Shown here: piece by piece, positions 254 through 64,000 of the stretch
Numbering within the stretch: the stretch's first letter is position 1
How the letters are laid out: every line of letters starts with the position of its first letter
Assembly: GCA_017432305.1 (NCBI GenBank)
Contig: JAFRJK010000001.1
Coordinates: 103,820-167,819 of the forward strand
Length of the DNA stretch: 64,000 nucleotides
Direction of reading: 5' to 3'
Source of the DNA: Candidatus Saccharimonadota bacterium
GTDB lineage: Bacteria; Patescibacteriota; Saccharimonadia; Saccharimonadales; Saccharimonadaceae
Notes under the pieces: generated by a model
Seen by the model: only the letters and a program-made list of their open reading frames with translations
Database searches by the model: none
Told to the model about the DNA's origin: nothing
Made by a program: the position numbers and the translations under genes

Positions 254-493
254 TCAAACGCTAGAGGGCGCGAAATTGCCAAATTCCGCGTCCTTTTTTA
301 CGCAACGGATAAGCCTTCCAGCGCCTCGTAATTGGTACGCTGGAAGATAAGCATAGGATGCCCCATTTTCAATTTGGGATCCTAGATAGTAAGCCCAGTC
401 AGCTGTAGCGCTAGCACGATTCCACCAACGCCCGACATCATTGCGCTTGACTAATGCAGCATTTCGGTTATATTCTCCACCCCTCCAAAAATC
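254..493 (-). other. Variable FISUMP-like cassette 1, no start codon
   Basis: Reads DFWRGGEYNRN..., then GRWWNRASATADWAYYLG, and ends GAGRLIRCV; it is open to a stop at 254-256. The conserved core is 300-493. A TAG stop directly precedes the first GAT codon, so it cannot be translated alone. Only the end motifs are shared with the other cassettes. The head faces cassette 2; the tail abuts the rplA terminator. Confidence 0.75.
264..299 (+). terminator. Rho-independent terminator of rplA
   Basis: A GC-rich stem (AGGGCGCGAAATT pairing with AAATTCCGCGTCCT, one G-U) is followed by a T run. The T run directly touches the tail of the first variable cassette (ACGCAACGGAT from base 300). Confidence 0.8.
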
Positions 494-556
494 CTAACAG
501 AGCATTATTAGGATATTATAGTAATTCTGTTCCGATTGGATTTTTGGAGGGGTGGG
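477..556. repeat. Head-to-head cassette linker (cassettes 1/2)
   Basis: Inverted copies of ATTTTTGGAGGGGTGG flank about 45 bp. The left arm carries the CTCTGTTAG stop-type flank and the right arm the GTTCCGATTG (TTG) flank. The inner sequence GAACAGAATTACTATAAT recurs in the linkers at 33126 and 45877. Confidence 0.8.
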
Positions 557-814
557 AATTACTATAATACTTATGGAAAGATTCGGGACCGATCATTCGC
601 GATATCTTGGTGGACTGGTTATGCGGCCTCCGGTACTAATTCAGATTTTTTGGATACATTCCGTGGTGGACAAAATGCTAATATCGGTTTCGGCAAAGCT
701 TTAAAAGGTCTAGGACATGCTCTCCGTTGCGCAACGGATAGAAACTCCTTGCCCGTCAAATATCCCAGCATCAAATCTAACACGCGCAGTAAGAGAACCA
801 CTATTATCTTCTAG
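536..814 (+). CDS. Variable FISUMP-like cassette 2 (TTG-headed, probably silent)
   Basis: TTG at 536 followed by DFWRGGNYYNTYGKIRDR, ISWWTGYAASGTNSD and KGLGHALRCA. The cassette core ends near 737 in the palindrome shared with cassette 3; the rest of the frame only runs through antisense DNA of cassette 3. There is no Shine-Dalgarno sequence before TTG and no signal peptide, so independent expression is doubtful. The C-terminal pattern G-x-G-x-x-x-R-C resembles FISUMP-like domain ends. Confidence 0.6.
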   Translation: MDFWRGGNYYNTYGKIRDRSFAISWWTGYAASGTNSDFLDTFRGGQNANIGFGKALKGLGHALRCATDRNSLPVKYPSIKSNTRSKRTTIIF

Positions 815-931
815 GCCGGTGTTTAATGTAACCCTAGATTTGGATGTTCGCCAATAATTATATGCGCCACCTTGAGCACGGCTAGCACGTCCCTGACTAC
901 GATCATACATCCCACCCCTCCAAAAATCCAA
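710..931 (-). CDS. Variable FISUMP-like cassette 3 (TTG-headed, probably silent)
   Basis: LDFWRGGMYDRSQGRASRAQ, then YNYWRTSKSR and DGQGVSIRCA; the frame stops soon after the tail. The TTG is preceded by GCTCC and not by a ribosome binding site. Tail shared with cassette 2. Its head points toward cassette 4 across an unusually long linker that holds a copy of the structured hairpin repeat. Confidence 0.6.
   Translation of the reverse strand: MDFWRGGMYDRSQGRASRAQGGAYNYWRTSKSRVTLNTGLEDNSGSLTARVRFDAGIFDGQGVSIRCATESMS
724..737. repeat. Tail-to-tail cassette palindrome (cassettes 2/3)
   Basis: CCGTTGCGCAACGG is a perfect palindrome. Each half encodes the IRC(A/V) tail of one cassette, so two convergent cassettes share these bases. 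Confidence 0.8.
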
Positions 932-1075
932 CGGAGCAAGAAGCTGATAAAAAGTAAGTTTACTTACTTTTTAGAAGCGACGCAGGTCCGTCTATATCGA
1001 AGCTAGACGGGGTAAAATTAAACTTTAGTATTAAAGAAAGCTAATATTACTCTGTAGCATTTTTGGAGGGGTGGG
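911..1075. repeat. Long head-to-head cassette linker (cassettes 3/4)
   Basis: Same inverted ATTTTTGGAGGGGTGGG ends as the other linkers but about 130 bp between them instead of 40-50. The extra DNA contains the perfect inverted repeat AAAAAGTAAG/CTTACTTTTT and a CCGTCTA/TAGACGG stem. The arm at 1051-1057 is the CTCTGTAG stop type. Confidence 0.7.
933..1010 (+). repeat. Structured hairpin repeat, copy 1
   Basis: Central inverted repeat at 949-972, then GAAGCGACGCA, enclosed by ACGGAGC and GGTCCGT which pair with one mismatch. It is a divergent member of the family at 8423-8581 and 46155-46246. Confidence 0.5.
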
Positions 1076-1270
1076 ATTTATGAAGTTTCCAATTCCGGTA
1101 AAATTTTAGCCAGAACCGATTATGGTCGTCTTTGGAGCAATACTAGACTATTAGAGAGACTTCGAGGTTCCTGTTTTAACTCTTATGTCCAAAGTAATAA
1201 GGGCACCGTAGTCCCCTCGGGTGGAGATGAAGGTGGGCATGGATATCTCATCCGTTGCGTAGTGTTGTAA
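1058..1270 (+). other. Variable FISUMP-like cassette 4, no start codon
   Basis: HFWRGGIYEVSNSGKILART, YGRLWSNTRLLERLRG and GGHGYLIRCVVL then TAA at 1268. The codon before CAT is TAG, so it has no own start. The stop lies inside a GTGTTGTAA/TTACAACAC hairpin, an arrangement similar to that after cassette 14. Confidence 0.75.
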
Positions 1271-1281
1271 AAATTACAACA
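1262..1281 (+). terminator. Inverted repeat at the end of cassette 4
   Basis: GTGTTGTAA and TTACAACAC pair perfectly around a 2-nt loop; only a short T-rich tail follows. Possibly the original 3' end of the full-length gene from which the cassettes derive. Confidence 0.5.
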
Positions 1282-1334
1282 CTTTGTATAAGATAAATGG
1301 AAAGAAGAAAGGAAAAATCATCAAACCTAAACAA

Positions 1335-2027
1335 TTACCCTTTTACATTACGAATATGAATCTTCCCATCTTTAATTTCGACCGAGCTGTCGCATTTTGC
1401 ATCGTTTTTATTGCATTCTTCATCAACTCTGATGTCTAAACTATGAAAGAAGTCGTCAATGACGCGATTAATATCATCTCTATTGCGTGAAGCCCAAACA
1501 CCACCAGTGACACAGGCAGCAATAAGAAGCCCAACCCCAAGAACAAAGTTAACAATCACTCCAGCAATCCAACCTCTTTTAAGTGAAGATGGCTTAATGA
1601 AGTAGCCGACACAACGTCCGAAGATAATAAACCCGAGGACGATGAAGGCAAAGACCATCGCAATCCCAAGGCTAGCGGCAACAATCAAAAGTGGCTTATC
1701 TGGAATATCTCCAGCAGCAAGTCCCATCATCCCGAAAATCGAAACTGGAATTAGTGCAATTAACTTTGCAACATTAGTAATTAACCCGATAATACCGATA
1801 ATGAGCAGCACAACACGAATCGCAGTCTGGGTACTTGTTTCTTTTGATTTTTCCTCTGTTTTAGCCTCTTTTGGGGCGGTTTTTGGCGCCTTCGGAGCGG
1901 TTTTTGGCGCACTTTTTGCTCTTGTGGTCTTCGAAGCGGTCTTTGCAGTCACTTTCGGCGCAGTTTTTGTCTTCGCCGAAGCAGTTTTGGTTTTAGTATT
2001 CTTCTTAGTAGTACTCTTATTTTCCAT
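1335..2027 (-). CDS. Lysine/alanine/threonine-rich membrane protein, unknown function
   Basis: The 230-residue product has three parts. Residues 1-68 are a low-complexity K/A/T/P tract with repeated APK, TKT and TAPK units. Residues about 69-175 hold three to four hydrophobic segments (TAIRVVLLIIGIIGLI, LIVAASLGIAMVFAFIVLG, WIAGVIVNFVLGVGLLIAA). The tail has two Cys (EECNKNDAKC) and many charges. The ATG lies 6 nt after a TATAAT box (2034-2039), suggesting a leaderless mRNA. It diverges from rplJ. The basic N-terminus may bind nucleic acid or just be a disordered cytoplasmic tail. I do not recognise the family. Confidence 0.75.
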   Translation of the reverse strand: MENKSTTKKNTKTKTASAKTKTAPKVTAKTASKTTRAKSAPKTAPKAPKTAPKEAKTEEKSKETSTQTAIRVVLLIIGIIGLITNVAKLIALIPVSIFGMMGLAAGDIPDKPLLIVAASLGIAMVFAFIVLGFIIFGRCVGYFIKPSSLKRGWIAGVIVNFVLGVGLLIAACVTGGVWASRNRDDINRVIDDFFHSLDIRVDEECNKNDAKCDSSVEIKDGKIHIRNVKG

Positions 2028-2065
2028 AATTTCATTATAACACGCCCGTCAATTTCGCTATACTC

Positions 2066-2094
2066 TTGTAAAAATCCTTCCTTCGTGATATAAT
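2066..2094 (+). promoter_or_regulatory. Promoter of rplJ-rplL
   Basis: TTGTAA and TATAAT with a 17-bp spacer. The transcript would have a leader of about 145 nt before rplJ. Confidence 0.75.
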
Positions 2095-2100
2095 GTACGA

Positions 2101-2244
2101 AGTTACCAAAGACAGCGACGGAAAGAAAACAAAACTTTCTTAATTATGTCGCCGAGGAAAATATCTTTTTTCGAGGTTTTTAGTAACGAATTTTAACAAT
2201 TCACTAGTTTTTAATAATAAATTAATAACCAATGGGAGCCAAAA
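2101..2244 (+). promoter_or_regulatory. Possible L10 leader
   Basis: Long 5' UTR with short complementary blocks (GCGAC with GTCGC; GAAAG with CTTTC; a CGAGG pair around ATATC). L10 operons are commonly autoregulated through such leaders; no family consensus is recognised here. Confidence 0.35.
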
Positions 2245-2769
2245 ATGGCAATTTCAAAGGATAAAAAGAATACATTGGTTGCTGATTTAACCGAGCTTTT
2301 AAATTCTAGCAAAATGACCGTTTACGCTAAATATCAAGGCCTTACAGTTGCTGAACTTCAGGAACTTCGTAAGAACGCTCGTGAAAATGGCGTAAAAATC
2401 AAGGTCGTAAAGAACCGCTTGGTTCGCGTCGCTATGAACTCCGTTGCAGTCTATAAAGATACCGACACAACTGGTCTTACCGGCCAATTACTCTACGCTA
2501 TCTCTGACTCTGACGAAGTCGCTCCTGCAAAAGTGCTCGCTGAGTTTTCTAAGAATCACGACATCTTACAAATTGTAGGTGGTTTTAACGACAGTGGTAA
2601 TAACCTCTCTGATGCTGAGATCAAAGCACTTGCTTCTCTCCCATCGAAGAACGAGCTTATCGCTCAAGTTGTTGCGAACCTTCTTTCCCCAGTCAACGAA
2701 TCTATCTCTGGTCTTGCAAACGGAGTTTCGGAAATCGTTTCTGGCCTTGAAGCAAAAGCAAACGCTTAA
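2245..2769 (+). CDS. rplJ: 50S ribosomal protein L10
   Basis: The 174-residue product has the L10 pattern: N-terminal KKNTLVADLTELLNSSKMTVYAKYQGLTVAELQELRKNAR, the core VKIKVVKNRLVRVA, and NELIAQVVANLLSPVNESISGLANGVSEIV near the C-terminus, where L7/L12 dimers dock. It anchors the L7/L12 stalk to 23S rRNA. The ATG follows GGGAGCC. rplL starts 34 bp downstream, so the two are co-transcribed from the promoter at 2066. The usual L1 neighbour has been displaced by the cassette locus. Confidence 0.97.
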   Translation: MAISKDKKNTLVADLTELLNSSKMTVYAKYQGLTVAELQELRKNARENGVKIKVVKNRLVRVAMNSVAVYKDTDTTGLTGQLLYAISDSDEVAPAKVLAEFSKNHDILQIVGGFNDSGNNLSDAEIKALASLPSKNELIAQVVANLLSPVNESISGLANGVSEIVSGLEAKANA

Positions 2770-2803
2770 ATTAGCAATCTATTAATAAGTAAAGGAATAT
2801 ACT

Positions 2804-3184
2804 ATGGCTGATATCAAAAAATTAGCTGAGGAACTCGTAAACCTCACCGTTCTTGAAGTTAACGAACTTAAGAACACTCTTAAAGATGAATATGGCATCG
2901 AGCCAGCTGCTGCTGCAGCTGTTGCTGTCGCTGCTCCTGCTGCAGGTGATGCAGCTGCTGCCGATGAAGGCAAATCTGAATTCACCGTCGTCCTTAAAGA
3001 CGCTGGTGCACAAAAAATCGCAGTTATCAAAGCTGTTAAAGAAGCTACCGGCCTCGGTCTTGGCGAAGCTAAAGCAATCGTTGACGGTGCTCCTGCAAAC
3101 GTTAAAGAAAAAGTCGCTAAAGACGAAGCTGAAGCTCTCAAGAAAGCTCTTGAAGAAGCTGGCGCTACTGTCGAGCTCGCTTAA
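2804..3184 (+). CDS. rplL: 50S ribosomal protein L7/L12
   Basis: The 126-residue acidic protein has an N-terminal dimerisation helix ([25 protein letters not shown]), an alanine-rich hinge (about residues 37-55) and the factor-binding C-terminal domain ([52 protein letters not shown]). It recruits and stimulates translational GTPases at the ribosomal stalk. Length and domains are normal. An AAAGGAATA block precedes the ATG. A strong terminator follows. Confidence 0.98.
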
Positions 3185-3221
3185 ACGAACAGAATCGCTT
3201 AGAACTAGTGAATTGTCTTAT

Positions 3222-3257
3222 AAAATAGCATCTCTATCTATTAGGGATGCTATTTTT
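3222..3257 (+). terminator. Terminator of rplJ-rplL
   Basis: AAATAGCATC pairs with GATGCTATTT, followed by a T run. Confidence 0.85.
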
Positions 3258-3303
3258 TATTTCTGTTATATCAACCTAAAATTAGATAAGCATAAGCTTC
3301 TAC

Positions 3304-3332
3304 TTGACTTTTTAATTCATTTGTGCTATAAT
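3304..3332 (+). promoter_or_regulatory. Strong promoter
   Basis: TTGACT and TATAAT with a 17-bp spacer, extended by TGTGC. It drives the small gene at 3420. Confidence 0.85.
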
Positions 3333-3340
3333 AAAAATAT

Positions 3341-3419
3341 AGTAGTCTAATAGTGGACTATTAAAACCATTTGCCCCTTTTATGGATGTAAAAGGGAGAG
3401 AACATTAGGAGGTATTCGT
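3341..3419 (+). promoter_or_regulatory. Structured 5' leader
   Basis: Two hairpins, TAGTC/GACTA and a perfect 8-bp CCCTTTTA/TAAAAGGG, precede a canonical TAGGAGG ribosome binding site. The leader could regulate translation or stabilise the mRNA. Confidence 0.5.
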
Positions 3420-3770
3420 ATGAATACAACAGCAGAGAAAACTTTATATGACATTATCGACGGCCCTAACAGGGACATGCTCTTCGACGCTTGCAAGTAT
3501 GCGTATAGTAATCTTGCAAAAGTCGATATTAGGTTCGCAGTCGCGAAGGCCTATACAGCACCTAAGGATAGCCAAAAAGCCCTGTTTATACCAATCAGGA
3601 CAAAGGATGTCGTAATAACTCAAATCCAGCACGAAGATGGATCCGGCGAATCCTTCAACTTAGTCGGATTCTGCAAGACCGATGTTGAAAGGGAACTTGA
3701 GTTTAAGCCTTGTAATTTCGAGGCCTATTACAACACTAAAACCAGAAATGGCAAAATAAGTTTCTTCTAA
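3420..3770 (+). CDS. Small soluble protein, unknown function
   Basis: The 116-residue product has no membrane segment or recognisable motif. Its sequence is mixed alpha/beta with two Cys (DACKYAYSN, GFCKTD). It has an unusually good expression context: consensus promoter, stable 5' hairpins, AGGAGG seven bases before ATG and a strong terminator as a single-gene unit. Codons avoid the typical neighbour bias slightly (several AGG for Arg). This suggests an abundant or regulated small protein. I do not recognise the family. Confidence 0.75.
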   Translation: MNTTAEKTLYDIIDGPNRDMLFDACKYAYSNLAKVDIRFAVAKAYTAPKDSQKALFIPIRTKDVVITQIQHEDGSGESFNLVGFCKTDVERELEFKPCNFEAYYNTKTRNGKISFF

Positions 3771-3778
3771 ACTCCAAC

Positions 3779-3809
3779 GCCAGGGGCATAAAACCCCTGG
3801 CATTTTTTA
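3779..3809 (+). terminator. Terminator
   Basis: GCCAGGGG and CCCCTGGC around CATAAAA, followed by ATTTTTT. It may serve both the gene to the left and convergent rlmH. Confidence 0.9.
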
Positions 3810-3827
3810 TTCTAAGAATTCTAAAAA

Positions 3828-4259
3828 CTATTCGTGGTGATACTTTCCACCGTGCGAAATCTCTTGCGCACGATAGATTTGTTCAACCATCATAATCCGC
3901 ATCAACATGTGAGGGAAGACTAATTTCGAAAAGCTCCAAACAAAATCGGCTTTATCCCGCGCTGCTTCTGAAACTCCATACGCCCCGCCAATAATAATCA
4001 CTACTTCCGAACTTGCGTTAAAAATCTTGTTTAGTTTATCCGAAAGCTCCGGGGAAGAGATATTTTTGCCCTTCTCATCCGCCAAAATCACGACCTCGTT
4101 CGACTTAAAGTCCCATTTCTCAAGTTTTTTCGCAAGTTTTTCTTCGTCTAAAACTTCCCACTTAACATCAAACGGCTTTTTTAAGCGTTTCTCATATTCT
4201 GCGCACGCTTCTTCCACCCAACCACTCGATTTCTTTCCGCCAGCAATAATTCTTATCAT
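3828..4259 (-). CDS. rlmH: 23S rRNA pseudouridine-1915 N3-methyltransferase RlmH
   Basis: The 143-residue protein is a SPOUT-class methyltransferase of normal length (about 155). It starts MIRIIAGGKKSSGWVEEACAEYEKRL and carries VVILADEKGKNISSPELSDKL, the SAM-binding knot VVIIIGGAYGVSEAARDKAD and the C-terminal FPHMLMRIMMVEQIYRAQEI-SHGGKYHHE. RlmH methylates pseudouridine 1915 in helix 69 of 23S rRNA in assembled ribosomes. It is a single-gene unit convergent with the gene at 3420. Confidence 0.95.
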   Translation of the reverse strand: MIRIIAGGKKSSGWVEEACAEYEKRLKKPFDVKWEVLDEEKLAKKLEKWDFKSNEVVILADEKGKNISSPELSDKLNKIFNASSEVVIIIGGAYGVSEAARDKADFVWSFSKLVFPHMLMRIMMVEQIYRAQEISHGGKYHHE

Positions 4260-4380
4260 TTTGCCTGTTCCCCTTTTCTAATTTCATTGTATTTTATTTT
4301 AGTATTTTTTACAACGCCCGCTGTGGAAAAAGTCGTAAGTCGCCCCTTAAAACCTCAGTATTTTTTTCTTCTAAAAAATC

Positions 4381-4407
4381 TTGACAAAAATATATTGCCG
4401 ATATAAT
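4381..4407 (+). promoter_or_regulatory. Promoter with perfect -35
   Basis: TTGACA followed 15 bp later by TATAAT; an overlapping second TATAAT at 4407-4412 gives a 20-bp spacer. Confidence 0.65.
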
Positions 4408-4444
4408 ATAATATTAATACTATATTAACAGACAGGATGCGAGG

Positions 4445-4963
4445 ATGTCTGAATTACCAGAAAAACAAATAAAGAGGTTACGTTCACTTATCCAAGAGGC
4501 GGAGACTAATTTAGCAGCAGCTAAAGAGCTTTTAATTTCTATTGTTGGCGACGGAGATACTATTACTGCACCTCGCGATGTTACGGTTTCTGATCCTGAA
4601 GGGAAGATTATTGAAGGCGTCTTTGATGGCCAAATTATGATTGACCAAGAAGGGAAGAACTACCCTGTCCCGGCAAACTACGCATCGAAATCTAAACTCG
4701 TCGAAGGCGATATCATGAAACTTACTATCACACCTGATGGAAAGTTCCTCTATAAACAAATCGGTCCAGTCGAGCGAAAAACCGTTATCGGAACCCTCAC
4801 CCACCATGACGATAAATACTTTGTTGAAGTAAACGGCCGTGAATACGAAGTACTTTACGCATCAGTTACTTACTTCCATCTAAAAGAAGGCTCGCAAGTT
4901 TCGGTCGTCATCCCGGCGCAAAACGAAGAAGCAAACTGGGCAGCAGTTGAAGCCGCATTATAA
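4445..4963 (+). CDS. Conserved-looking hypothetical protein with beta-barrel-like core
   Basis: The 172-residue product starts with a predicted helix (PEKQIKRLRSLIQEAETNLAAAKELL). A beta-rich region follows with regularly spaced Gly/Asp turns (VTVSDPEGKIIEGVFDGQ, GDIMKLTITPDGKFLYKQIG, GTLTHHDDKYFVEVNGREYEVL). These turns resemble OB-fold or S1/KOW-like barrels, and no catalytic motif stands out. No Cys, no signal peptide. It is transcribed alone from a strong promoter and ends in a clean terminator. A nucleic-acid or ribosome-associated role is only a guess from the fold-like pattern. Confidence 0.75.
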   Translation: MSELPEKQIKRLRSLIQEAETNLAAAKELLISIVGDGDTITAPRDVTVSDPEGKIIEGVFDGQIMIDQEGKNYPVPANYASKSKLVEGDIMKLTITPDGKFLYKQIGPVERKTVIGTLTHHDDKYFVEVNGREYEVLYASVTYFHLKEGSQVSVVIPAQNEEANWAAVEAAL

Positions 4964-4971
4964 AATTAGTT

Positions 4972-5000
4972 TTAAAGACCGCCGAAAGGCGGTTTTTTCT
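4972..5000 (+). terminator. Terminator
   Basis: GACCGCC GAAA GGCGGTTTTTT. Cassette 5 begins about 30 bp downstream. Confidence 0.9.
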
Positions 5001-5007
5001 ATCCAAA

Positions 5008-5226
5008 TTATTTTTTTATTTTATCCACTACGCAACGGATAGACCTCCCGGCTCCTCTCCACATTCCACCAGCAGGCTCAACCCACCCAGTAGCACTACC
5101 ATTATTACCACCGATAGATACTGTATAGAAGGCTCTATCTGCACTAAGAGCACGGCGAATCCAGAGAATCGACACGACGAGGCGACCACTAACAGTCGGT
5201 TCATATAACCCACCCCTCCAAAAATA
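5008..5226 (-). other. Variable FISUMP-like cassette 5, no start codon
   Basis: YFWRGGLYEPTVSGRLVVSI, LWIRRALSADRAFYTVSIGG and RGAGRSIRCVVDK, open to a TAA at 5008-5010. The core is 5030-5226. The head flank is AATACTCCATTA, a variant of the stop-type arm without the TAG. No start codon is nearby. Confidence 0.75.
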
Positions 5227-5294
5227 TAATGGAGTATTATTAAGATAAGGATGTCTGTTTTTTTGGTTAACCGTTGGATTTTTGGAGGGGTGGG
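5209..5294. repeat. Head-to-head cassette linker (cassettes 5/6)
   Basis: Inverted ATTTTTGGAGGGGTGG ends. The right arm carries TTGGTTAACCGTTG and the inner part AAGATAAGGATGTCTGTTTTTT, both found again in reverse orientation in the linker at 6716. Confidence 0.8.
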
Positions 5295-5606
5295 GCTATG
5301 GCACCTGGTGGGTCATCGTTCATTTGGGGACGTTATCAACAGGCAGTTGCGCATTATTGGCCTAATAGGGCTGCAAGTGCCAATTCTGGTCATGTAATAC
5401 TTACGTTTGTAGATGACAAAGTTAATCAGGGAGCTGTTAGAGTCACGGATTCCTATAGTAGAGGCTTCGGGATTTCTATCCGTTACGCAACGGATGCGAA
5501 TCCCTCTGCCTTTACTACCACCTCCACCTTGCGGGAATACAGCACCGGTATCACTCCCAAAATCTGTGAAAGGGAGAGTGTCAAGATAAGTGCCATTATG
5601 ATTTGA
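5274..5606 (+). CDS. Variable FISUMP-like cassette 6 (TTG-headed, probably silent)
   Basis: LDFWRGGAMAPGGSSFIWGR, AHYWPNRAASANSGHVILTF and SRGFGISIRYA. The usual tail Cys is replaced by Tyr (CGT TAC). The cassette part ends about 5493; the remaining frame is antisense to cassette 7. No ribosome binding site before TTG. Confidence 0.6.
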   Translation: MDFWRGGAMAPGGSSFIWGRYQQAVAHYWPNRAASANSGHVILTFVDDKVNQGAVRVTDSYSRGFGISIRYATDANPSAFTTTSTLREYSTGITPKICERESVKISAIMI

Positions 5607-5702
5607 GCCAATACTTTTTGTCCACCAATACCCGCCTACTATGCGCTGTATAACACGGTTATTCGTATAAACCCCACCCCTCCAAAAATCCAACGGAGAC
5701 AC
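5313..5702 (-). CDS. Variable FISUMP-like cassette 7 (possible GTG or TTG start)
   Basis: GTG at 5702 gives SPLDFWRGGVYTNNRVIQR, then GGYWWTKSIGSNHNGTYLD and SKGRGIRIRCV. The core is about 5482-5692. The rest of the frame is antisense to cassette 6. Its head points outward into the ndk promoter region with no partner head beyond it. Confidence 0.6.
   Translation of the reverse strand: MSPLDFWRGGVYTNNRVIQRIVGGYWWTKSIGSNHNGTYLDTLPFTDFGSDTGAVFPQGGGGSKGRGIRIRCVTDRNPEASTIGIRDSNSSLINFVIYKRKYYMTRIGTCSPIRPIMRNCLLITSPNER
5478..5495. repeat. Tail-to-tail cassette palindrome (cassettes 6/7)
   Basis: ATCCGTTACGCAACGGAT, palindromic except at one base pair; the odd base makes the Cys-to-Tyr change in cassette 6 only. 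Confidence 0.8.
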
Positions 5703-6316: not shown

Positions 6317-6523
6317 TTGGATTTTTGGAGGGGTGGGATGTATGAATACAGTGGCGGTATTCAAGTTCGTGTATCAAAAGGCTATTGGTGGAGGCCATCT
6401 ACCGCTGGCGTTAGTACTGCTCATAACCTTGCTACTGGCCTTAGCGGTAATGGTACTGCTTATTTTTGGCTACCAGGTGGCGACCCGAAAGGTTTGGGGT
6501 ATTCTATCCGTTACGGAGTTTGA
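6317..6523 (+). CDS. Variable FISUMP-like cassette 8 (TTG-headed, complete)
   Basis: LDFWRGGMYEYSGGIQVRVS, KGYWWRPSTAGVSTAHNL and GLGYSIRYGV then TGA. The tail Cys is Tyr. The flank GGTGTTCTCTTG recurs before cassette 14. No ribosome binding site, no signal peptide. Confidence 0.65.
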   Translation: MDFWRGGMYEYSGGIQVRVSKGYWWRPSTAGVSTAHNLATGLSGNGTAYFWLPGGDPKGLGYSIRYGV

Positions 6524-6539
6524 GTCTATAAGCAACGGA
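6506..6539. repeat. Tail-to-tail cassette junction (cassettes 8/9)
   Basis: ATCCGTTACGG and GCAACGGAC in inverted orientation separated by about 15 bp; a looser version of the palindrome seen at the other junctions. Confidence 0.7.
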
Positions 6540-6735
6540 CAAGATACCCATGGCCAGAATAATCGCTGCCTGAGACATACACGGCTCCGCTATTTGCAGG
6601 AAAAGTATTCAATAGACCAGATAAGCCTGACTGCGCAAAAGTAAAAGCACCAGTCCAGAAGCGTCCACTATTAGTTCGACTATAAACTTTGCCACTTCCT
6701 GCTACCTCATACATTCCACCCCTCCAAAAATCCAA
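6526..6735 (-). CDS. Variable FISUMP-like cassette 9 (TTG-headed, complete)
   Basis: LDFWRGGMYEVAGSGKVYSR, NSGRFWTGAFTFAQSGLSGL and YSGHGYLVRCL then TAG. The head has the AACCGTTG flank. It forms an inverted pair with cassette 10. Confidence 0.65.
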   Translation of the reverse strand: MDFWRGGMYEVAGSGKVYSRTNSGRFWTGAFTFAQSGLSGLLNTFPANSGAVYVSGSDYSGHGYLVRCL

Positions 6736-6800
6736 CGGTTAACCAAAAAACAAATATCCTTGTCTTAATAATGCTCTGTTAGGATTTTTGGAGGGGTGGG
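6716..6800. repeat. Head-to-head cassette linker (cassettes 9/10)
   Basis: Same two half-flanks as the linker at 5209 but in opposite order: CCGTTGG-type arm at left and the AATGCTCTGTTAG stop arm at right. Confidence 0.8.
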
Positions 6801-6998
6801 GCTTATTATAAAGGTGGAGTTTGGGATCCTGATAAAGATTTTCGTGCTTGGATAGGTTATGTCGATAATTCGTATGGAGATACTCATGGGCTATATGCAA
6901 ACATATCTTCGCAAACCACCACTGGTACAGGCGGAGTTTGGCTGGAAGACCGATATGCAGGTAGGGGGCTAGGATATCTCATCCGTTGCGTAAGCTAG
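6783..6998 (+). other. Variable FISUMP-like cassette 10, no start codon
   Basis: DFWRGGAYYKGGVWDPDKDF, RAWIGYVDNSYGDTHGLYAN and GRGLGYLIRCVS then TAG. TAG also directly precedes the GAT codon. The downstream flank GCTAGGTTTAGTGTTTATGA resembles the sequence at 46240. Confidence 0.75.
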
Positions 6999-32884: not shown

Positions 32885-33146
32885 AATCAATAAATTTTAA
32901 TAAACGCGAAATTACCAAAATTTTGGTAATTTCGCTTATTTTTATGCAACGGATAGAAAGCCCATGTCCTCTATCAGCGGAAGTCGTGAGCCAAATATCC
33001 ATATAGTTGAGATTGCTACTATCCGTACCAAAAACATAGCCTCTATTAGGAGGGTCTATGATCCCTATCCACCACCAACCCTTCATTACGCGAGGAGTGA
33101 CCATACCGACGAGATGACGATAAATCCCACCCCTCCAAAAATCCAA
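32814..33146 (-). CDS. Variable FISUMP-like cassette 11 (TTG-headed, probably silent)
   Basis: LDFWRGGIYRHLVGMVTPRV, KGWWWIGIIDPPNRGYVFG and DRGHGLSIRCI. Core about 32943-33145; the frame continues into the ackA terminator and the antisense of its 3' end. The TTG is in the flank GTTCCAATTG; no ribosome binding site. Confidence 0.6.
   Translation of the reverse strand: MDFWRGGIYRHLVGMVTPRVMKGWWWIGIIDPPNRGYVFGTDSSNLNYMDIWLTTSADRGHGLSIRCIKISEITKILVISRLLKFIDFSLQRRLREGRLRDESFLQIHRF
32904..32942 (+). terminator. Terminator of ackA
   Basis: GCGAAATTACCAAAA/TTTTGGTAATTTCGC, a perfect palindromic stem, then TTATTTTTA. The tail of cassette 11 (TGCAACGGAT) begins at the end of the T run. Confidence 0.85.
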
Positions 33147-33206
33147 TTGGAACAGAATTACTATAATGTTCTAATATTGCTCTGTAGTATTTTTGGAGGG
33201 GTGGGG
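33126..33206. repeat. Head-to-head cassette linker (cassettes 11/12)
   Basis: Inverted ATTTTTGGAGGGGTGGG ends. The inner part is nearly identical, inverted, to the linker at 45877 (GTTCC.ATTG arm, GAACATTATAGTAATTC, CTAATATTGCTCTGTAG arm). A TATAAT at 33162 points toward cassette 12. Confidence 0.8.
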
Positions 33207-33484
33207 AATATTTCATGTCAGCTGGTGGTATTTACGATAGGCTAATAATGATCCGTTTCTGGATGTCGCGAACAGGAAATTATGACTCAGCCCTCACTTT
33301 TCGTACTGTAACTACTGATGGCACCGGTGAAGTACTTTTTTCAGCTGGGCATTCTAGGGGATTAGGATTTTCTATCCGTTGCATAAATATTTCGCGCTAC
33401 GCAACGGATAAAGACTCCACCACCTCTGACAAGATCGTATTTAGTAGTGAAAAACCCGCCATCACCAAATCGGTTCGTTCCTAA
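33188..33484 (+). other. Variable FISUMP-like cassette 12, no start codon at head
   Basis: YFWRGGEYFMSAGGIYDRLI, IRFWMSRTGNYDSALTFRTV and SRGLGFSIRCI. TAG directly precedes the TAT codon. Core to about 33389; the frame then runs antisense through cassette 13. An internal ATG at 33215 could be mistaken for a start. Confidence 0.7.
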
Positions 33485-33595
33485 TACAAAACTCTGCCAA
33501 GGAGATGCTACACTACGTGACCACCACATACTAAGTGATGTACGAGCTTCGATGTCACCATCACTGCGTCGATAATGTCCACCCCTCCAAAAATA
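33362..33595 (-). other. Variable FISUMP-like cassette 13, no start codon
   Basis: YFWRGGHYRRSDGDIEARTS, LSMWWSRSVASPWQSFVLG and VRGGGVFIRCVA; core 33399-33595. Preceded by TAG. The frame stays open through the junction to TAA at 33362. Confidence 0.75.
33374..33409. repeat. Tail-to-tail cassette junction (cassettes 12/13)
   Basis: ATCCGTTGCATA and TACGCAACGGAT inverted around about 14 bp, so each cassette keeps its own full tail. Confidence 0.75.
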
Positions 33596-33650
33596 CTACA
33601 GAGCATTATTATAGTTCTTTGGTGTTCTCTTGGATTTTTGGAGGGGTGGG
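33579..33650. repeat. Head-to-head cassette linker (cassettes 13/14)
   Basis: Left arm is the CTCTGTAG stop type, right arm GGTGTTCTCTTG as before cassette 8. At about 70 bp this is the shortest linker. Confidence 0.8.
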
Positions 33651-33845
33651 TTTTATAGTAGCCGGTCGGGTGGTGGTGTACTAAATCGTACGTCCGAGTC
33701 TCACCAGTGGTCTTCCGTCGTCCCTGGCAACATCATAGCGGGCCGGAATTTGTCTCTATACCTCTCTGAGGGTACTGCTTATGCCTGGCCTCTAGGTGAT
33801 TACTGGCGTGGTGGTGGATTCTTCATCCGTTGCGTACTGTTGTAG
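33630..33845 (+). CDS. Variable FISUMP-like cassette 14 (TTG-headed, complete)
   Basis: LDFWRGGFYSSRSGGGVLNR, SHQWSSVVPGNIIAGRNLSL and WRGGGFFIRCVLL then TAG. The stop lies in a TGTTGTAG...CACAACGA inverted repeat resembling that after cassette 4. No Shine-Dalgarno or signal sequence. Confidence 0.65.
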   Translation: MDFWRGGFYSSRSGGGVLNRTSESHQWSSVVPGNIIAGRNLSLYLSEGTAYAWPLGDYWRGGGFFIRCVLL

Positions 33846-45484: not shown

Positions 45485-45829
45485 AGTGGTACTCTCTTAG
45501 ATTTTTGGAGGGGTGGGTATTATACTCGCACTATCGGAGATATAAACAGTCGTCTAATCGGTATTGTCCTATGGGCTAATCGTACTCATTCTGAACCTTA
45601 TACGTACCAGTTTTCTGCCTGGCGTGATGGTGATTCGATAAAAATAAATGCTGAGCGCTCGTTTAATTGGCGAGGTTATGGGTATGGTATCCGTTGCGCA
45701 CGGATAAGTGCTCCAATACCTCTAAGACCGCCACCGACCGGCCATATGCTTGCATATATCTCATCCCGTAAATCTGAAACAAGGCGGCTATTATCTTGGG
45801 CTAATGAAGCAAAACGTGTTTGCCAATAG
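45461..45829 (+). CDS. Variable FISUMP-like cassette 15 with extended 5' frame
   Basis: Core 45500-about 45700: DFWRGGYYTRTIGDINSRLI, IVLWANRTHSEPYTYQFSA and RGYGYGIRCA. The flank ACTCTCTTA resembles GTTCTCTTG of cassettes 8 and 14 with TTG changed to TTA. The frame stays open upstream (TPAIKLFSIDASISGTLLDFW) but that part is the antisense of the PemK-like remnant. TTG at 45461 is the only possible start. The 3' extension is antisense to cassette 16. Confidence 0.55.
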   Translation: MFSIDASISGTLLDFWRGGYYTRTIGDINSRLIGIVLWANRTHSEPYTYQFSAWRDGDSIKINAERSFNWRGYGYGIRCARISAPIPLRPPPTGHMLAYISSRKSETRRLLSWANEAKRVCQ

Positions 45830-45894
45830 CCGCTACTATCGGGAACTTCAATACGACCATCCGAACGAAGATATATCCCACCCCTCCAAAAATA
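45676..45894 (-). other. Variable FISUMP-like cassette 16, no start, damaged tail
   Basis: YFWRGGIYLRSDGRIEVPDS, SGYWQTRFASLAQDNSRLV and LRGIGALIRAQRI. TAG precedes the first codon. The tail frame is shifted by the junction deletion, replacing the conserved Cys. Confidence 0.7.
45689..45705. repeat. Tail-to-tail cassette junction with asymmetric deletion (cassettes 15/16)
   Basis: ATCCGTTGCGCACGGAT: the right half has lost two bases relative to GCAACGGAT, so cassette 16 reads IRAQ and not IRCV. Confidence 0.8.
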
Positions 45895-45956
45895 CTACAG
45901 AGCAATATTAGAACATTATAGTAATTCTGTTCCGATTGGATTTTTGGAGGGGTGGG
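45877..45956. repeat. Head-to-head cassette linker (cassettes 16/17)
   Basis: Inverted copy of the linker at 33126: CTACAGAGCAATATTAG arm, GAACATTATAGTAATTC, GTTCCGATTG arm. The right half matches the linker at 477 as well. Confidence 0.85.
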
Positions 45957-46175
45957 ATTTATGATGGAAAATCTGGCAGACTGGGAAATCGTCTCGTTTG
46001 GAATCACCGCATCACGAAGGTCTCGTTCTCCGCATCATCTGTGCCTAAAATTAGAACTATGAATTCCTATGCAGATGGTAATTATGCGACAGTCTGGATA
46101 CCTGGCGGAGATAGTATAATATGGGGGTATGTTATCCGTTGCGTCATAGAGTGTTCCGTCTTCGCTTCGCTCTAG
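45936..46175 (+). CDS. Variable FISUMP-like cassette 17 (TTG-headed, probably silent)
   Basis: LDFWRGGIYDGKSGRLGNRL, VWNHRITKVSFSASSVPKI and IIWGYVIRCVIE. Core to about 46145. The same GTTCCGATTG flank as cassette 2. No ribosome binding site. Confidence 0.65.
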   Translation: MDFWRGGIYDGKSGRLGNRLVWNHRITKVSFSASSVPKIRTMNSYADGNYATVWIPGGDSIIWGYVIRCVIECSVFASL

Positions 46176-59489: not shown

Positions 59490-59490
59490 A

Positions 59491-60939
59491 ATGGATATTG
59501 AAAAGATTAGAAAACGTCGTGCAATCAAAGTAGTCATTACTGATATTATTATGGCAACCTCAGTTGTAATCATTTCAATTATCCTTGTAGCAGTAGTCAC
59601 TGGCTGGCGTATTAATAAAGACTTCACAATTGAGCAAAACGGTCTCGTCTCAATTAGAACGAACCCGACCGGAGTCTCGGTTATCATTGACGATGAAAAG
59701 CAGTCTCAAACCACCAATATGACTAAAATGCTGCGCGGTGGGGAACATAAAATTACTTTAAAAAAGGATGGCTATGATTCTTGGGAGAAAACCGTAAAAA
59801 TCACTCCGGGATGGCTTCTTCGTCTCGAATATCCTCGACTTTTCAAACAAAATCGTGAAACCGAAACTATTGAAACTCTAAACGGCCTAAAATTCTTCCA
59901 TGTTTCTCCAGACCATAGCACTGCTCTTTATACGACCAATGATTCGACAAAATGGCAAGTTATGACAAATTTCAATTCCACCCCAAAAACCGAGGAGGTT
60001 GATTTAACTGACATCTTTAGTGATACAAGAAATGGGAATTTTCCTTATTCTATTAAGTCCATAAAATGGAGCCGTGATAACGAACGCGTCCTCCTAAACG
60101 TCACCAATGGTAAAACTGATGAGTGGGGAATCATCGATTTAAAAAATAGTAAAAACAGTTTTAACCTTTCGACCATCTACAACCAAAAAATCTCCGTTGC
60201 CGAATTTGAAGGCGGCTCAAATAACCGCATTATTATGATTCTTGGCGGAAAACTCGTACGGAGTGATCTATCCTCAAAAACTCTTATCGAGCCAAGTATC
60301 GAAAATGTCTCGAGTTTTTTCTCAAACGGTTCTGAGATAATTTATCTTTCTCGAGATAGCTCAAATATCGAAACGCTTTGGCTCACAAAATTTGGTAGCG
60401 AAAGAGCAACGAAAATTGTAGAACTTAAAAACGGCGACAGTACTACTTTTGCGCTCACTCACTTTAACGACTCTAATTATCTCGCCTATACGCTTAATAA
60501 CCACCTTTACGTTTACCAAAATAGCACCTATCCAACCGAAGAAGATGATATTACTAATATGAAATTAATCGTCGATAGTGATATCGAAATTAGCCCAAGC
60601 GAAGTATTTGTTTCGAATAATAATGAATTTATCATCTTTAAAGATAACCAAAAAATAGTCCTCTTTGATACTGAATTAGAAATTTATCACACCTATGATT
60701 ATGGTTCAAACAAAGTTAAATTCCTTGATGGCTCTATTCTTTACCGAGTCGATAACGAATCGAAAAGTTTCATCGCTTTCGATTTCGACAATACAAACAC
60801 TCGTACCATATTAAACGACCACGCAGCTGACGGTTTTGATGCGCTTATTTCCAATAATAATCGCTACTTCTATTACGTTGGGACATTTGAAACTGCGTCT
60901 TCTAAAAACGAGCTTAGATTAGTTCGCGAAAAACTTTAA
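59491..60939 (+). CDS. Membrane-anchored PEGA-domain protein with propeller-like ectodomain
   Basis: The 482-residue protein has an N-terminal TM anchor (AIKVVITDIIMATSVVIISIILVAVVTGW), a PEGA domain (GLVSIRTNPTGVSVIIDDEKQ...LRGGEHKITLKKDGYDSWEKTVKI, about 50-110) and a region of repeated blades (KWSRDNERVLLNV, FFSNGSEIIYLSRDSSN, NHLYVYQNS). Probably a surface or wall-binding protein. Co-transcribed with the sortase but lacks a visible sorting signal. Confidence 0.82.
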   Translation: MDIEKIRKRRAIKVVITDIIMATSVVIISIILVAVVTGWRINKDFTIEQNGLVSIRTNPTGVSVIIDDEKQSQTTNMTKMLRGGEHKITLKKDGYDSWEKTVKITPGWLLRLEYPRLFKQNRETETIETLNGLKFFHVSPDHSTALYTTNDSTKWQVMTNFNSTPKTEEVDLTDIFSDTRNGNFPYSIKSIKWSRDNERVLLNVTNGKTDEWGIIDLKNSKNSFNLSTIYNQKISVAEFEGGSNNRIIMILGGKLVRSDLSSKTLIEPSIENVSSFFSNGSEIIYLSRDSSNIETLWLTKFGSERATKIVELKNGDSTTFALTHFNDSNYLAYTLNNHLYVYQNSTYPTEEDDITNMKLIVDSDIEISPSEVFVSNNNEFIIFKDNQKIVLFDTELEIYHTYDYGSNKVKFLDGSILYRVDNESKSFIAFDFDNTNTRTILNDHAADGFDALISNNNRYFYYVGTFETASSKNELRLVREKL

Positions 60940-61025
60940 TTTTATCCAATTTTAGGACGAAAAGCACTTGCTTTTTCATTATGCTTTCGGTTATAATAGA
61001 TATAAGTTTTTAGAGGTTTTAATTG

Positions 61026-62198
61026 ATGAGTAATTCTGAAAAAATTAAAGTTAGTATTAGCAGCAGTGCCGCGCATCGTGGGGTTGAAAAATCTTCGACG
61101 CTTAATCGCCGCTATGTGAAACGTCCGACTAAACTCACTATTTCTGATGGAACCGAAAACGAAAAAGAAGCTAAAAAGGCTAAAAAAGTTGAAGTTAAAA
61201 AATCCACCTCTAAAAAAGCAAAAACTGAGAAAGTCGAGAAGAAAACTGAAAAAGTCGAAATTAAAAAGACTCTCTCAAAAAAGGCTGACACCCCGAAAAA
61301 AGTCGAGATTAAATCCTTAAAATCTGACGAACTAACGGAAAAAGCAACTGAAGAATTACTTACTGTTATTCCGAAAATCGCCCATATTCACGTCGAAACT
61401 CCGGATTCCGCTAATGAAAAATTAAAAATTAAAGACGACGCCGAAATTCCGGACGTTCCTCCTGCACCAAACCCATACCAAGCTGCGCTTGATGCTCGAA
61501 AAGCTGAAAATGAAAAAAAGCAACTCGCAGCGATTTCGTCTAAAGCTCTAAAAGAAGCTGCAATTGCTCGCGCTCTTGCCGGGATGAAAAAACCTACCCC
61601 AGCTTCGAAGAAAGAGCTAAAAGAGGAATCTATTGCTGAACGCGTTATGTTAAACGAGATGAAGGCTGCGAAAAAAGAAAAACGCGCCGATAAAAAATCT
61701 CGTAAAAAGACACTTAAAGAAACCCGCCATCTTAAAAAACGCTCGAGGAAACACGTTCTCTTTGCGCTCGCCGCTTCGACCGCTTGTATGATTGCTTTAG
61801 GCGTGCTCGTAAAAGTTAATCTTCCAAATATTTCCGTTAAAGTTGCGGCAGTTCAAACCGGTGTTGAGGCGACTTACCCTGGCTATATCCCGCGTGATTT
61901 CTCGATTAACGATGTCTACACCGACGAAGAAACTGTAATTATTAACTTCAGTGGTCCGAATGATATGAAATTCTCGCTTGCTGAAGAAAAAAGCTCCTGG
62001 AGTTCTAGTTCACTCCTCACAAACTACGTTAAGAATGCCTATGGTTCTAATTACGAAGTTATCCGTGAACAGGGAATCACAATTTATGTTAGCGCTAGTA
62101 ACGCTAGCTGGGTAAATAAAGGTGTCTTTTATCGTATTACTGCCACTAACGGAACCCTCACAAAGAAGCAAATTAAGAACATTGTCACATCTCTTTAA
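61026..62198 (+). CDS. Lysine-rich single-pass membrane protein with extracellular C-terminal domain
   Basis: The roughly 390-residue protein has a very basic cytoplasmic half (KKAKKVEVKKSTSKKAKTEKVEKK..., about 40-235), a TM helix (HVLFALAASTACMIALGVLVKV) and about 120 extracellular residues (GVEATYPGYIPRDFSINDVYTDEETVIINFSG...GVFYRITATNGTLTKKQIKNIV), reminiscent of DUF4367-type domains. ATG 61026 preferred over an adjacent TTG. Separate transcription unit after the sortase operon. Function unknown. Confidence 0.78.
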   Translation: MSNSEKIKVSISSSAAHRGVEKSSTLNRRYVKRPTKLTISDGTENEKEAKKAKKVEVKKSTSKKAKTEKVEKKTEKVEIKKTLSKKADTPKKVEIKSLKSDELTEKATEELLTVIPKIAHIHVETPDSANEKLKIKDDAEIPDVPPAPNPYQAALDARKAENEKKQLAAISSKALKEAAIARALAGMKKPTPASKKELKEESIAERVMLNEMKAAKKEKRADKKSRKKTLKETRHLKKRSRKHVLFALAASTACMIALGVLVKVNLPNISVKVAAVQTGVEATYPGYIPRDFSINDVYTDEETVIINFSGPNDMKFSLAEEKSSWSSSSLLTNYVKNAYGSNYEVIREQGITIYVSASNASWVNKGVFYRITATNGTLTKKQIKNIVTSL

Positions 62199-62210
62199 AT
62201 TAGCCTCACA

Positions 62211-62250
62211 CAATAAAATTCACCCCTTGAAAGAGGGGTAATTTTATTGT
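62211..62250. terminator. Strong symmetrical terminator between 61026 gene and gltX
   Basis: CAATAAAATT-C-ACCCCT-TGAAAG-AGGGGT-AATTTTATTG. The last T of the stem is the first base of the gltX -10 box (TATACT 62250-62255). Confidence 0.85.
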
Positions 62251-62261
62251 ATACTTTTCTT

Positions 62262-63737
62262 ATGAAAGAAATTAGAACTCGCTTTGCCCCAAGTCCAACG
62301 GGCTATATCCATATTGGTAACGTCAGAAGTGCAATTTATCCATATCTCATCGCGCGTCAAAATGACGGGAAATTTATTCTTCGTATCGAGGATACCGACC
62401 GCGCACGTTATGTCGAAGGTGCAACCGAGCTAATTGAAGATACCTTAAAATGGCTAGGCTTAGAATGGGATGAAGGCCCGATTGTCGGAGGCGAAAATGG
62501 TCCTTATTTCCAAACCGAGAGAAAAGACCACTATATCGCTTGGGCGAAGAAGTTGATTGAAACTGGCCGCGCTTATCCTGATGATACTCCAAGTGAAAAA
62601 ATCGATGAATACCGAAAAGAAGATAATGCGAAAAAAATCCCTTATCTTTATCGAAATCACCGTCCAGCTTCCGCAGAAAACTCACCGGAAGAGAATCTAG
62701 AAATCTGGAAAGAGGGAACACCACTTCGTTTTAAGGCTGATCCAAAAAATTACGAGTGGAAAGACGAAGTCATGGGCGAAATGCATACTGGTCCAGAAGT
62801 TTGTGATGATATTATTTTAATTAAAAAAGACGGGCTTCCAACTTATAATTTTGCACACATTATCGACGATGCAGAAATGGGCGTAACGCACATCGCACGC
62901 GGAGTTGAATATCTATCGTCTATGCCGAATTATCTTGCGCTCTACGAGGCTCTAGGACTCGACAGACCGTTATTCTTAAGCTTACCGCATATTTTAGCAC
63001 CTCAAGGCAATAAAAAGCTTGGAAAGCGTGATGGGGCGAAATCCGTGACAGAATACCGCGATGATGGAGTCTTACCAGAAGCAATGTTGAATTACCTCGC
63101 ATGTCTTGGCTGGAACGACGGAACCGAAAAAGAAATTTATTCTAAAGATGAATTAATTAAGGCTTTCTCGATTGATCGCATTCAAAATTCCGGCGCTCGC
63201 TTCGATGAAGTAAAAATCTATTGGTATAACGGCCAATGGATTCGAAAAATTGCTGACGAACAAGGAATCGATGAGCTTTATTCGAGGACCAAAGGTTTTT
63301 GGCCAGAAGTCGCCGAAAATGAACCAGAAGATTATAAGAAAAAAGTTCTCTCGATTATTTACGACCGCTTAAAAACTCTCTCCGATCTAAAATCTATGAC
63401 TGAATATTTCTTCGTTGATCCAAAAATCGATGCCTCAATGATTTTAGAGAATAAATTCTTGAAAAAACTCTCCGAAACCGAACTTATCGAGCTTCTAACT
63501 CTTACGATTGAACGCTTAAACGATGTTTCAGATTGGTCCGAAGAAAATCTCCAAAAAGAATTAAACGATTTACTGGCAAAATCAGGGAAGAAGCCGGCGG
63601 AATATTTCAGTCTCGTTCGCATCGCCGTCTCGTTTGCACCATTTTCACCAGCCCTACATCAAACCTTGTCCGTCCTCGGACGAGATAAAGTCTTGTCACG
63701 TCTAAATATGACACGTACAGCATTGGTTAGTGGATAG
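62262..63737 (+). CDS. gltX: Glutamyl-tRNA synthetase
   Basis: The 491-residue class I synthetase has the HIGH-type motif RFAPSPTGYIHIGNVRSAIYPYL, DTDRARYVEGATELIEDTLKWLGLEWDEGP and the KMSKS-like KKLGKRDGAKSVTEYRDDG. In many lineages without GlnRS this enzyme also charges tRNA-Gln for amidation. ATG 62262 lies 6 nt after TATACT, so I prefer it to the upstream TTG-type start at 62247. Confidence 0.95.
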   Translation: MKEIRTRFAPSPTGYIHIGNVRSAIYPYLIARQNDGKFILRIEDTDRARYVEGATELIEDTLKWLGLEWDEGPIVGGENGPYFQTERKDHYIAWAKKLIETGRAYPDDTPSEKIDEYRKEDNAKKIPYLYRNHRPASAENSPEENLEIWKEGTPLRFKADPKNYEWKDEVMGEMHTGPEVCDDIILIKKDGLPTYNFAHIIDDAEMGVTHIARGVEYLSSMPNYLALYEALGLDRPLFLSLPHILAPQGNKKLGKRDGAKSVTEYRDDGVLPEAMLNYLACLGWNDGTEKEIYSKDELIKAFSIDRIQNSGARFDEVKIYWYNGQWIRKIADEQGIDELYSRTKGFWPEVAENEPEDYKKKVLSIIYDRLKTLSDLKSMTEYFFVDPKIDASMILENKFLKKLSETELIELLTLTIERLNDVSDWSEENLQKELNDLLAKSGKKPAEYFSLVRIAVSFAPFSPALHQTLSVLGRDKVLSRLNMTRTALVSG

Positions 63738-63908
63738 AAAAGCACTAAACCACAATCCATCTTCCATACCGCTCACGTCAAGAAAATCTCTTTTTCTATC
63801 CAGGACTGCGCCCAGATCTTCGTCCGGTACTCGTCGTGGTATAGAAAAAGAGTTTTTCATTGGCTCGCTTTTTTCAATGGAAGATAAATTGGGTTCAGTG
63901 CTTTTCTA
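63735..63908 (+). ncRNA. Long rod-like inverted repeat, candidate structured RNA
   Basis: Outer arms TAGAAAAGCACT (63735) and AGTGCTTTTCTA (63897) pair perfectly. Next come AAACC..ATCTTCCAT and ATGGAAGAT..GGTT, then GAAAATCTCTTTTTCTAT (63782) and ATAGAAAAAGAGTTTTTC (63841). The apical loop is GGAC..GTCC. A 174-nt rod with internal bulges is 6S-RNA-like in shape, but no promoter is obvious and gltX read-through may make it. Confidence 0.5.
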
Positions 63909-64000
63909 CGCAACGGATAGACCACCCCAAACCTCTACTATCAACGCCTAACGGCCAAACATAAACCGACGTACCCGCATTATAACTGACTGCATTTGCA
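63895..64000 (-). other. Variable FISUMP-like cassette 18 (cut by window edge)
   Basis: Minus-strand frame reads ANAVSYNAGTSVYVWPLG-VDSRGLGWSIRCVEKH then TGA. The tail ATCCGTTGCGTA abuts the outer arm of the inverted repeat at 63735-63908. The head lies beyond the window. Confidence 0.7.

What the first reader, a model, noticed from the sequence alone, without database searches (positions are those of the whole stretch)
254..64000. Dispersed reservoir of 18 start-less variable coding cassettes with invariant DNA ends
Seen directly: 18 elements of about 200 bp share an almost invariant 5' end (ATTTTTGGAGGGGTGGG, encoding FWRGG) and 3' end (ATCCGTTGCGTA, encoding IRCV), while the DNA between differs strongly from element to element. 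They sit in six places across 64 kb between housekeeping genes. The translations look like the last 65 residues of FISUMP-like domains (Y-W, G, then RGxGxxIRCV). Inference: these are silent 3' cassettes that recombine through their conserved ends into one or more expressed surface-protein genes elsewhere, giving antigenic or binding variation, comparable in logic to vls or pilS.
Basis: partly seen in the sequence, partly recalled or inferred. Interest (0 to 1): 0.95.

Follow-up and report, generated by a model that had tools for sequence, protein, structure and literature searches.

The report
Retroelement with a silent variant library
In a small-genome Saccharibacteria bacterium, one predicted surface-protein gene beside a mutation-making retroelement shares its variable end with more than a hundred silent copies spread over the genome, which likely store old variants and would let the cell bring them back.

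Summary
Seventeen cassette heads and one cut cassette lie in the window; the 748-kb genome has 117 heads, 112 with an identical 16-bp start. Exactly one (outside the window) continues a long frame: a 522-aa open gene with a predicted membrane anchor reading ...APLDFWRGG.... The expressed end differs from the template only at template adenines (17 of 17 core differences), and so does a second allele (12 of 12 residues). Variation seen at the expressed site thus comes from the DGR, not from cassettes. The cassettes carry the ends of the expressed copy rather than of the template, lack its downstream hairpin, and nearly all stay in frame. Two show strongly adenine-biased changes against this template. 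In two other species of the genus the link is plainer: dispersed cassettes, some changed almost only at adenines of their resident template, others aged. I read them as DGR-made variants copied to silent sites and kept. Recall into the gene is inferred; no mosaic was seen. My literature searches found no counterpart.

The parts
299..492 (-). silent cassette, FWRGGEYNRNAAL...IRCV
   Evidence: head and tail matches, open frame
540..733 (+). silent cassette
722..739 (.). tail-to-tail palindrome CTCCGTTGCGCAACGGAT, predicted 6-bp stem with 4-nt loop
728..927 (-). silent cassette
1059..1261 (+). silent cassette; tail followed by a 10-bp-stem hairpin
5029..5225 (-). silent cassette
5278..5489 (+). 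silent cassette; an ORF in it is listed as one sequence on 41 contigs
5478..5495 (.). tail-to-tail palindrome ATCCGTTACGCAACGGAT, predicted 7-bp stem with 4-nt loop
5484..5689 (-). silent cassette
6321..6517 (+). silent cassette
6529..6731 (-). silent cassette
6784..6992 (+). silent cassette
32943..33142 (-). silent cassette; tail followed by a 13-bp-stem hairpin
33189..33385 (+). silent cassette
33398..33594 (-). silent cassette
33634..33836 (+). silent cassette
45501..45700 (+). silent cassette
45694..45893 (-). silent cassette whose tail is one base short inside the palindrome; inner end approximate
45940..46145 (+). silent cassette
63907..64000 (-). eighteenth cassette, cut by the window and contig end; its end overlaps contig C2 by 135 bp. 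The expressed gene and the DGR lie outside the window (C8:9291-10856 and C5:1-3034)

Best explanation
The cassettes share both DNA ends with the variable 3' end of a single predicted surface-protein gene that lies beside a diversity-generating retroelement, and they likely are retroelement-made variants that were copied out to silent sites, kept there, and would be recalled into the gene by recombination across the shared ends. Anatomy read from the sequence: target gene (C8:9291 to the contig end), its variable region (VR) continuing at the start of contig C5, then a 331-aa accessory ORF, a reverse transcriptase and, on the other strand, the template repeat (TR). Descent of the cassettes from DGR-made variable regions is well supported (I put it at about 0.85): they have the VR's own ends, two match this TR with strongly adenine-biased changes, and in two sister species many dispersed cassettes differ from the resident TR mostly or almost only at adenines. 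Storage is supported less strongly: cassettes lack the VR's downstream hairpin, so most are predicted to be poor retrohoming targets, and they stay in frame while ageing. How a variant is copied out (DNA recombination or a reverse-transcribed copy) and whether it is ever recalled are inferred.
For: One long frame among 117 heads; target gene with matching junction. DGR: RT with IGNLTSQ and YVDD, TR 91% identical to the VR over 256 bp; 17 of 17 core VR-TR differences at TR adenines, 50 of 171 bases being A. Cassette ends are VR-type, not TR-type. Two own cassettes with mismatches at TR adenines 19/49 v 5/116 and 28/49 v 14/116 elsewhere. G011: 10 of 11 dispersed cassettes biased at p<0.01, best 26/55 v 0/143. 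G087: 17 of 33 at p<0.01, 15 of 33 with at most 10% non-adenine changes. Mismatch rates by TR base highest at A in both. Frames open; a fold glycine in 109 of 109 with four codons. Hairpin flank absent from 101 of 101 own tails and from the 9 readable ones of 11 in G011. Cassette ORF listed as one sequence on 41 contigs. A second copy of the present VR appears to lie between contigs C6 and C8.
Against: No cassette-to-gene transfer seen: both expressed alleles known are TR-derived, and no mosaics. In the own genome only 2 cassettes are clearly tied to the present TR; the others are too diverged to trace (which printed the 14 most TR-like rows). G046 has 61 repeats of its own head but no detected RT. 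Convergent cassette pairs make a hairpin of their own (two junctions folded), so they may not be shielded. Stability rests on one ORF; a second had no homologue. The VR 3' fold is only modestly better than shuffles (z -1.68). One of 11 G011 cassettes has a stop codon. The gene end and the DGR sit on different contigs that overlap by 72 bases.
Confidence: 0.5

Rival explanations
1. The cassettes are by-products: DGR-made ends are copied out now and then by recombination or stray reverse transcription and linger without any return path.
For: No recall seen; gene end, template, a fragment and a fourth copy share one 3' boundary but differ at 5', as stray reverse-transcribed copies could; G046 keeps cassettes without a detected RT.
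Against: Strongly diverged cassettes remain open and in frame (100 of 101 interiors) with conserved fold residues and synonymous changes, which neutral debris should lose; species-specific ends are kept almost invariant.
Confidence: 0.27
2. The cassettes are silent DGR targets, rewritten in place by retrohoming.
For: They keep the 12-bp tail like that of the VR; convergent pairs form a short hairpin at the tail; some outer tails abut hairpins; fresh adenine-type variants occur at dispersed sites.
Against: The VR hairpin flank is absent from 101 of 101 own tails, and published work ties retrohoming to such a structure (PMC3240598, passages read); most own cassettes are unlike the TR; one cassette ORF is listed as one sequence on 41 contigs.
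Confidence: 0.13
3. A vls/pilS-type reservoir only: segmental gene conversion from silent cassettes makes the variation and the DGR is incidental.
For: Layout: one expressed gene with many silent pieces sharing short ends.
Against: Expressed alleles reachable from the TR at adenines only, 15 of 15 and 12 of 12; no mosaics.
Confidence: 0.05
4. Assembly or binning artefact.
For: An 8-contig draft of which several contigs end in cassettes.
Against: 17 cassettes lie inside one continuous 64-kb stretch between housekeeping genes; contamination is listed as 0.05; similar layouts occur in other genomes of the genus with different ends.
Confidence: 0.03

Closest known systems
Diversity-generating retroelements (BPP-1 type; a Patescibacteria clade is described by Roux et al. 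2021, PMC8144416, passages read)
   Same: RT, TR and VR at the 3' end of the target gene, adenine-specific differences, different ends in TR and VR, hairpin after the VR.
   Different: The accessory ORF matched no family searched; over a hundred silent VR-like cassettes go with it.
DGRs with several variable regions (Yan et al. 2019, PMC6642488, passages read: 271 of 948 DGRs; 92.6% of VRs overlap ORFs)
   Same: More than one VR-like copy per template.
   Different: There the copies mostly lie in target genes; here 116 of 117 heads have fewer than 100 open codons upstream and the tails lack the VR's 3' flank.
Remote variable proteins of cyanobacterial DGRs (PMC7517822, passages read)
   Same: Dispersed relatives of the DGR target.
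   Different: There described as whole proteins; here short 3' cassettes.
Borrelia vls and Neisseria pilS silent cassettes (recalled; PMC9159922 seen as a listing only)
   Same: One expressed gene, many silent partial copies, short conserved flanking DNA.
   Different: No mosaic seen; cassettes in 30 clusters; the variation seen at the expressed site comes from a DGR.

Membership tests
Diversity-generating retroelement | Reverse transcriptase of the DGR kind | tested here: met
   RVT_1 37.4 bits over a cut-off of 29.6; phrog_1423 reverse transcriptase E 2e-76; best PDB sequence hit 8ub7, named Reverse transcriptase, E 4e-24 (that it is the BPP-1 enzyme is recalled); motifs YVDD and IGNLTSQ in the sequence (DGR diagnostic value recalled).
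Diversity-generating retroelement | TR/VR pair differing at TR adenines | tested here: met
   17 of 17 core differences.
Diversity-generating retroelement | VR at the 3' end of a target gene, TR outside it near the RT | tested here: met
   gene and VR end are on contigs overlapping by 72 bp.
Diversity-generating retroelement | Different end sequences in VR and TR, hairpin after the VR | tested here: met
   predicted fold only, z -1.68.
Diversity-generating retroelement | Avd-type accessory protein | tested here: inconclusive
   331-aa ORF in place, 45% identical to that of G043 over 261 aa, but no family or PDB match (one sub-cut-off NCBIfam match).
Diversity-generating retroelement | C-type lectin fold of the variable domain | tested here: inconclusive
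Diversity-generating retroelement | Retrohoming activity | not testable with these tools
   Only two alleles compared.
vls/pilS-type silent-cassette gene conversion | One expressed locus and silent partial copies with shared ends | tested here: met
   silence inferred from missing upstream frames.
vls/pilS-type silent-cassette gene conversion | Mosaic expressed alleles built from cassettes | tested here: not met
   Two alleles, both TR-derived; hardly any shared blocks among cassettes.
vls/pilS-type silent-cassette gene conversion | Dependence on recombination proteins | not testable with these tools
   Needs genetics.
Multi-VR DGR | Extra VRs lie in target genes | tested here: not met
   116 of 117 heads have fewer than 100 open codons upstream.

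The most novel reading that the evidence does not exclude
A bacterium that couples a mutation engine to a heritable memory: the DGR invents receptor ends in one gene, useful ones are written as locked, silent cassettes into intergenic slots by an active copying process, and are recalled into the gene when needed, so the cell explores with the retroelement and remembers with the archive.
Probability: 0.3. Interest if true: 0.97.

Novelty: new variant of a known kind. Interest (0 to 1): 0.87.

Why it matters
As DGRs are understood, each retrohoming event overwrites the last variant. A genome-wide store of past variants with matching ends would give such an engine a memory. Cassettes with species-specific ends recur in the genus, so the idea can be tested from metagenome reads without culture. 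The store is also a record of past variable regions, and bears on how Saccharibacteria, which live on other bacteria (recalled, not tested here), could change partners.

Tried and rejected

Rows dropped before counts: of 117 heads, 101 have a recognised tail; 10 more end in a shortened palindrome and were added for the alignment; 2 with a stop codon were left out there; 4 are truncated or degenerate and 2 are cut by contig ends. Two cassettes at the ends of C2 and C5 differ by one base and may be one locus. One search printed only the 14 most TR-like rows. In G011, 11 dispersed cassettes lay in the stretches fetched and one of them is a fragment, of 28 matches at E 0.01 or better; in G087, 33, of 57 such matches, which also include VR, TR and another target. 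In G011, 2 of the 11 could not be judged for the hairpin because masked bases follow. Start codons were checked only in the own genome.
Full report
What is in the window. Seventeen copies of a 17-base head (14 exact, 3 with one mismatch) lie in the window, against 0.18 expected; an eighteenth cassette is cut at 63907-64000. Each is about 190-210 bp and reads as an open frame of the form FWRGG.Y...G......R....W...RG.GxxIRC; flanking genes include ribosomal protein L10, nucleoside diphosphate kinase, acetate kinase and DnaJ.

Genome scale. The window belongs to a 747,863-base, 8-contig genome. It holds 117 heads at up to two mismatches, 112 of them identical over 16 bases, in 30 clusters. In arrays, neighbours alternate in direction (81 of 87). 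Heads face each other across short spacers (42 pairs; 37-57 bp, three near 130 bp) and tails overlap in a palindrome (36 pairs, 35 recognised). Of 101 cassettes with a recognised tail all keep the frame and 2 have a stop codon; 100 interiors are open. The other forward frames are open in 13 and 1, shuffled interiors in 3.6 on average.

One expressed gene. Of the 117 heads exactly one continues a long frame: 501 codons at G000:C8. The protein has a predicted helix near its N-terminus (residues 12-35 of P0001, moderate confidence) and a FISUMP-like region below the curated cut-offs, and reads ...NGAPLDFWRGGLYSRSNGG... up to the contig end. The start of contig C5 overlaps it by 72 bases and reads on in frame to ...FYIRCVARQ and a stop.

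A retroelement next door. After the stop on C5 come a 331-aa ORF, a 375-aa reverse transcriptase with YVDD and IGNLTSQ, and on the opposite strand a 256-base repeat 91% identical to the gene's end. In the 171-base core the two differ at 17 bases, all 17 adenines in the template. This is the signature of a diversity-generating retroelement. Gene end and template differ in the last bases before the stop (ATCCGTTGCGTAGCGCGCC against ATTCGTTGTGTGGCGAGGC), and of the two only the gene's end is predicted to form a hairpin with a 4-base loop there. The same gene order is present in two relatives, G043 and G107. Their contig lengths equal those of records titled Candidatus Saccharibacteria from goat duodenum and roe deer rumen.

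What varies at the expressed site. P0001, from another record, aligns without a difference up to the head and then differs at 15 positions. Own and foreign tails are each reachable from the template by changing adenines alone: 15 of 15 and 12 of 12. So the retroelement, not the cassettes, explains the variation seen; only two alleles were available. P0001 is listed with 13 member sequences, whereas the one cassette ORF that could be tested is listed as one sequence on 41 contigs. A second cassette ORF found no homologue.

Where the cassettes come from. At both ends they match the gene, not the template. Their most variable columns are those where the template has AAN codons (mean entropy 3.68 in 14 columns against 2.65 in 40, p=1e-5). 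Two are clear products of this template: mismatches at adenines 19/49 against 5/116 elsewhere, and 28/49 against 14/116. The rest are old: the median pairwise identity is 45%, with almost no shared blocks. Two sister species make the point more plainly. In G011, 10 of 11 dispersed cassettes are adenine-biased against the resident template at p<0.01, from 26/55 against 0/143 to aged ones; the eleventh is not. Its target end is cut by a contig end, so that gene is inferred from position. In G087, 17 of 33 show the bias at p<0.01 and 15 of 33 have at most 10% other changes; its arrays run head to tail. Pooled mismatch rates at template A, C, G, T are 0.54, 0.25, 0.13, 0.13 in G011 and 0.46, 0.29, 0.26, 0.15 in G087. 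Four genomes examined each have their own repeated end motif. G046 has 61 such repeats and no detected reverse transcriptase, so the store may outlive its maker, or the gene may be missing from the draft.

Why I call it a store. In the own genome none of 101 cassettes continues more than 8 bases into the gene's hairpin flank; in G011 none of the 9 readable ones has the flank shared by gene and template. Guo et al. (PMC3240598, passages read) report that such a structure is critical for retrohoming in BPP-1, so the cassettes are predicted to be shielded from rewriting. A caution: convergent cassettes make a small hairpin of their own. The cassettes keep fold residues with synonymous codon changes: one glycine in 109 of 109 using four codons, one tyrosine in 101 of 109. 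DGR products start without stop codons at variable sites, because NNY codons cannot be stops (established genetics), but old cassettes should have lost the frame if nothing ever selected on them. I infer that they are at times expressed, most simply through recombination across the shared ends into the single gene. That step has not been seen. Against it stand the lack of mosaics and the two TR-derived alleles.

Copying. Contigs C6 and C8 end in the same 141 bases, and C5 and C8 both carry the part that follows, which suggests a second copy of the present variable end, without the gene in front, between C6 and C8. Gene end, template, this copy and a fragment at C5:2449-2524 all stop at the same ...TGCGTTTCGC, while their 5' ends differ. 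Copying by reverse transcription would leave that, but four copies do not prove it, and the dispersed cassettes end earlier.

Literature. Searches listed no report of silent, gene-less DGR cassettes. DGRs with several variable regions (PMC6642488) and dispersed variable paralogues (PMC7517822) are known; passages were read. The 2017 survey of DGRs in candidate phyla (PMC5436926) is not held and was not seen, so 'not in print' holds only for this library and these terms.

Noticed in passing
window about 63790-63853; starts of contigs C1, C3 and C7 (L054, L040, L061): A repeat with inverted ends (CTCTTTTTCTAT...ATAGAAAAAGAG) is shared by three contig starts and occurs near the window end; the stretch with the C1 copy gave no Rfam match.
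   Followed up: partly
window 493-539, 33143-33188, 45894-45939 and other head-to-head spacers: Spacer sequences recur in near-identical form at distant loci, for example the same 46 bp at C3_385 and C4_16747. Why spacers are shared while cassettes are not is unexplained.
   Followed up: no
L124, L125, L127, L153, L154 (genome G087): Cassettes stand mostly in head-to-tail tandem, joined in frame by short linkers, unlike the alternating arrays of the own genome.
   Followed up: partly
G046 (L128-L132, L140-L142): 61 repeats of a species-specific head without any detected DGR reverse transcriptase; a 780-aa FISUMP-like gene ends in a similar but not identical stretch.
   Followed up: partly
L031/L032 (G000:C1:96063-97670): A 944-aa frame with two FISUMP matches, unrelated to the cassette heads.
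   Followed up: no
L149 329-345, L150 638-654: Single exact head matches in two viral contigs; may be chance.
   Followed up: no
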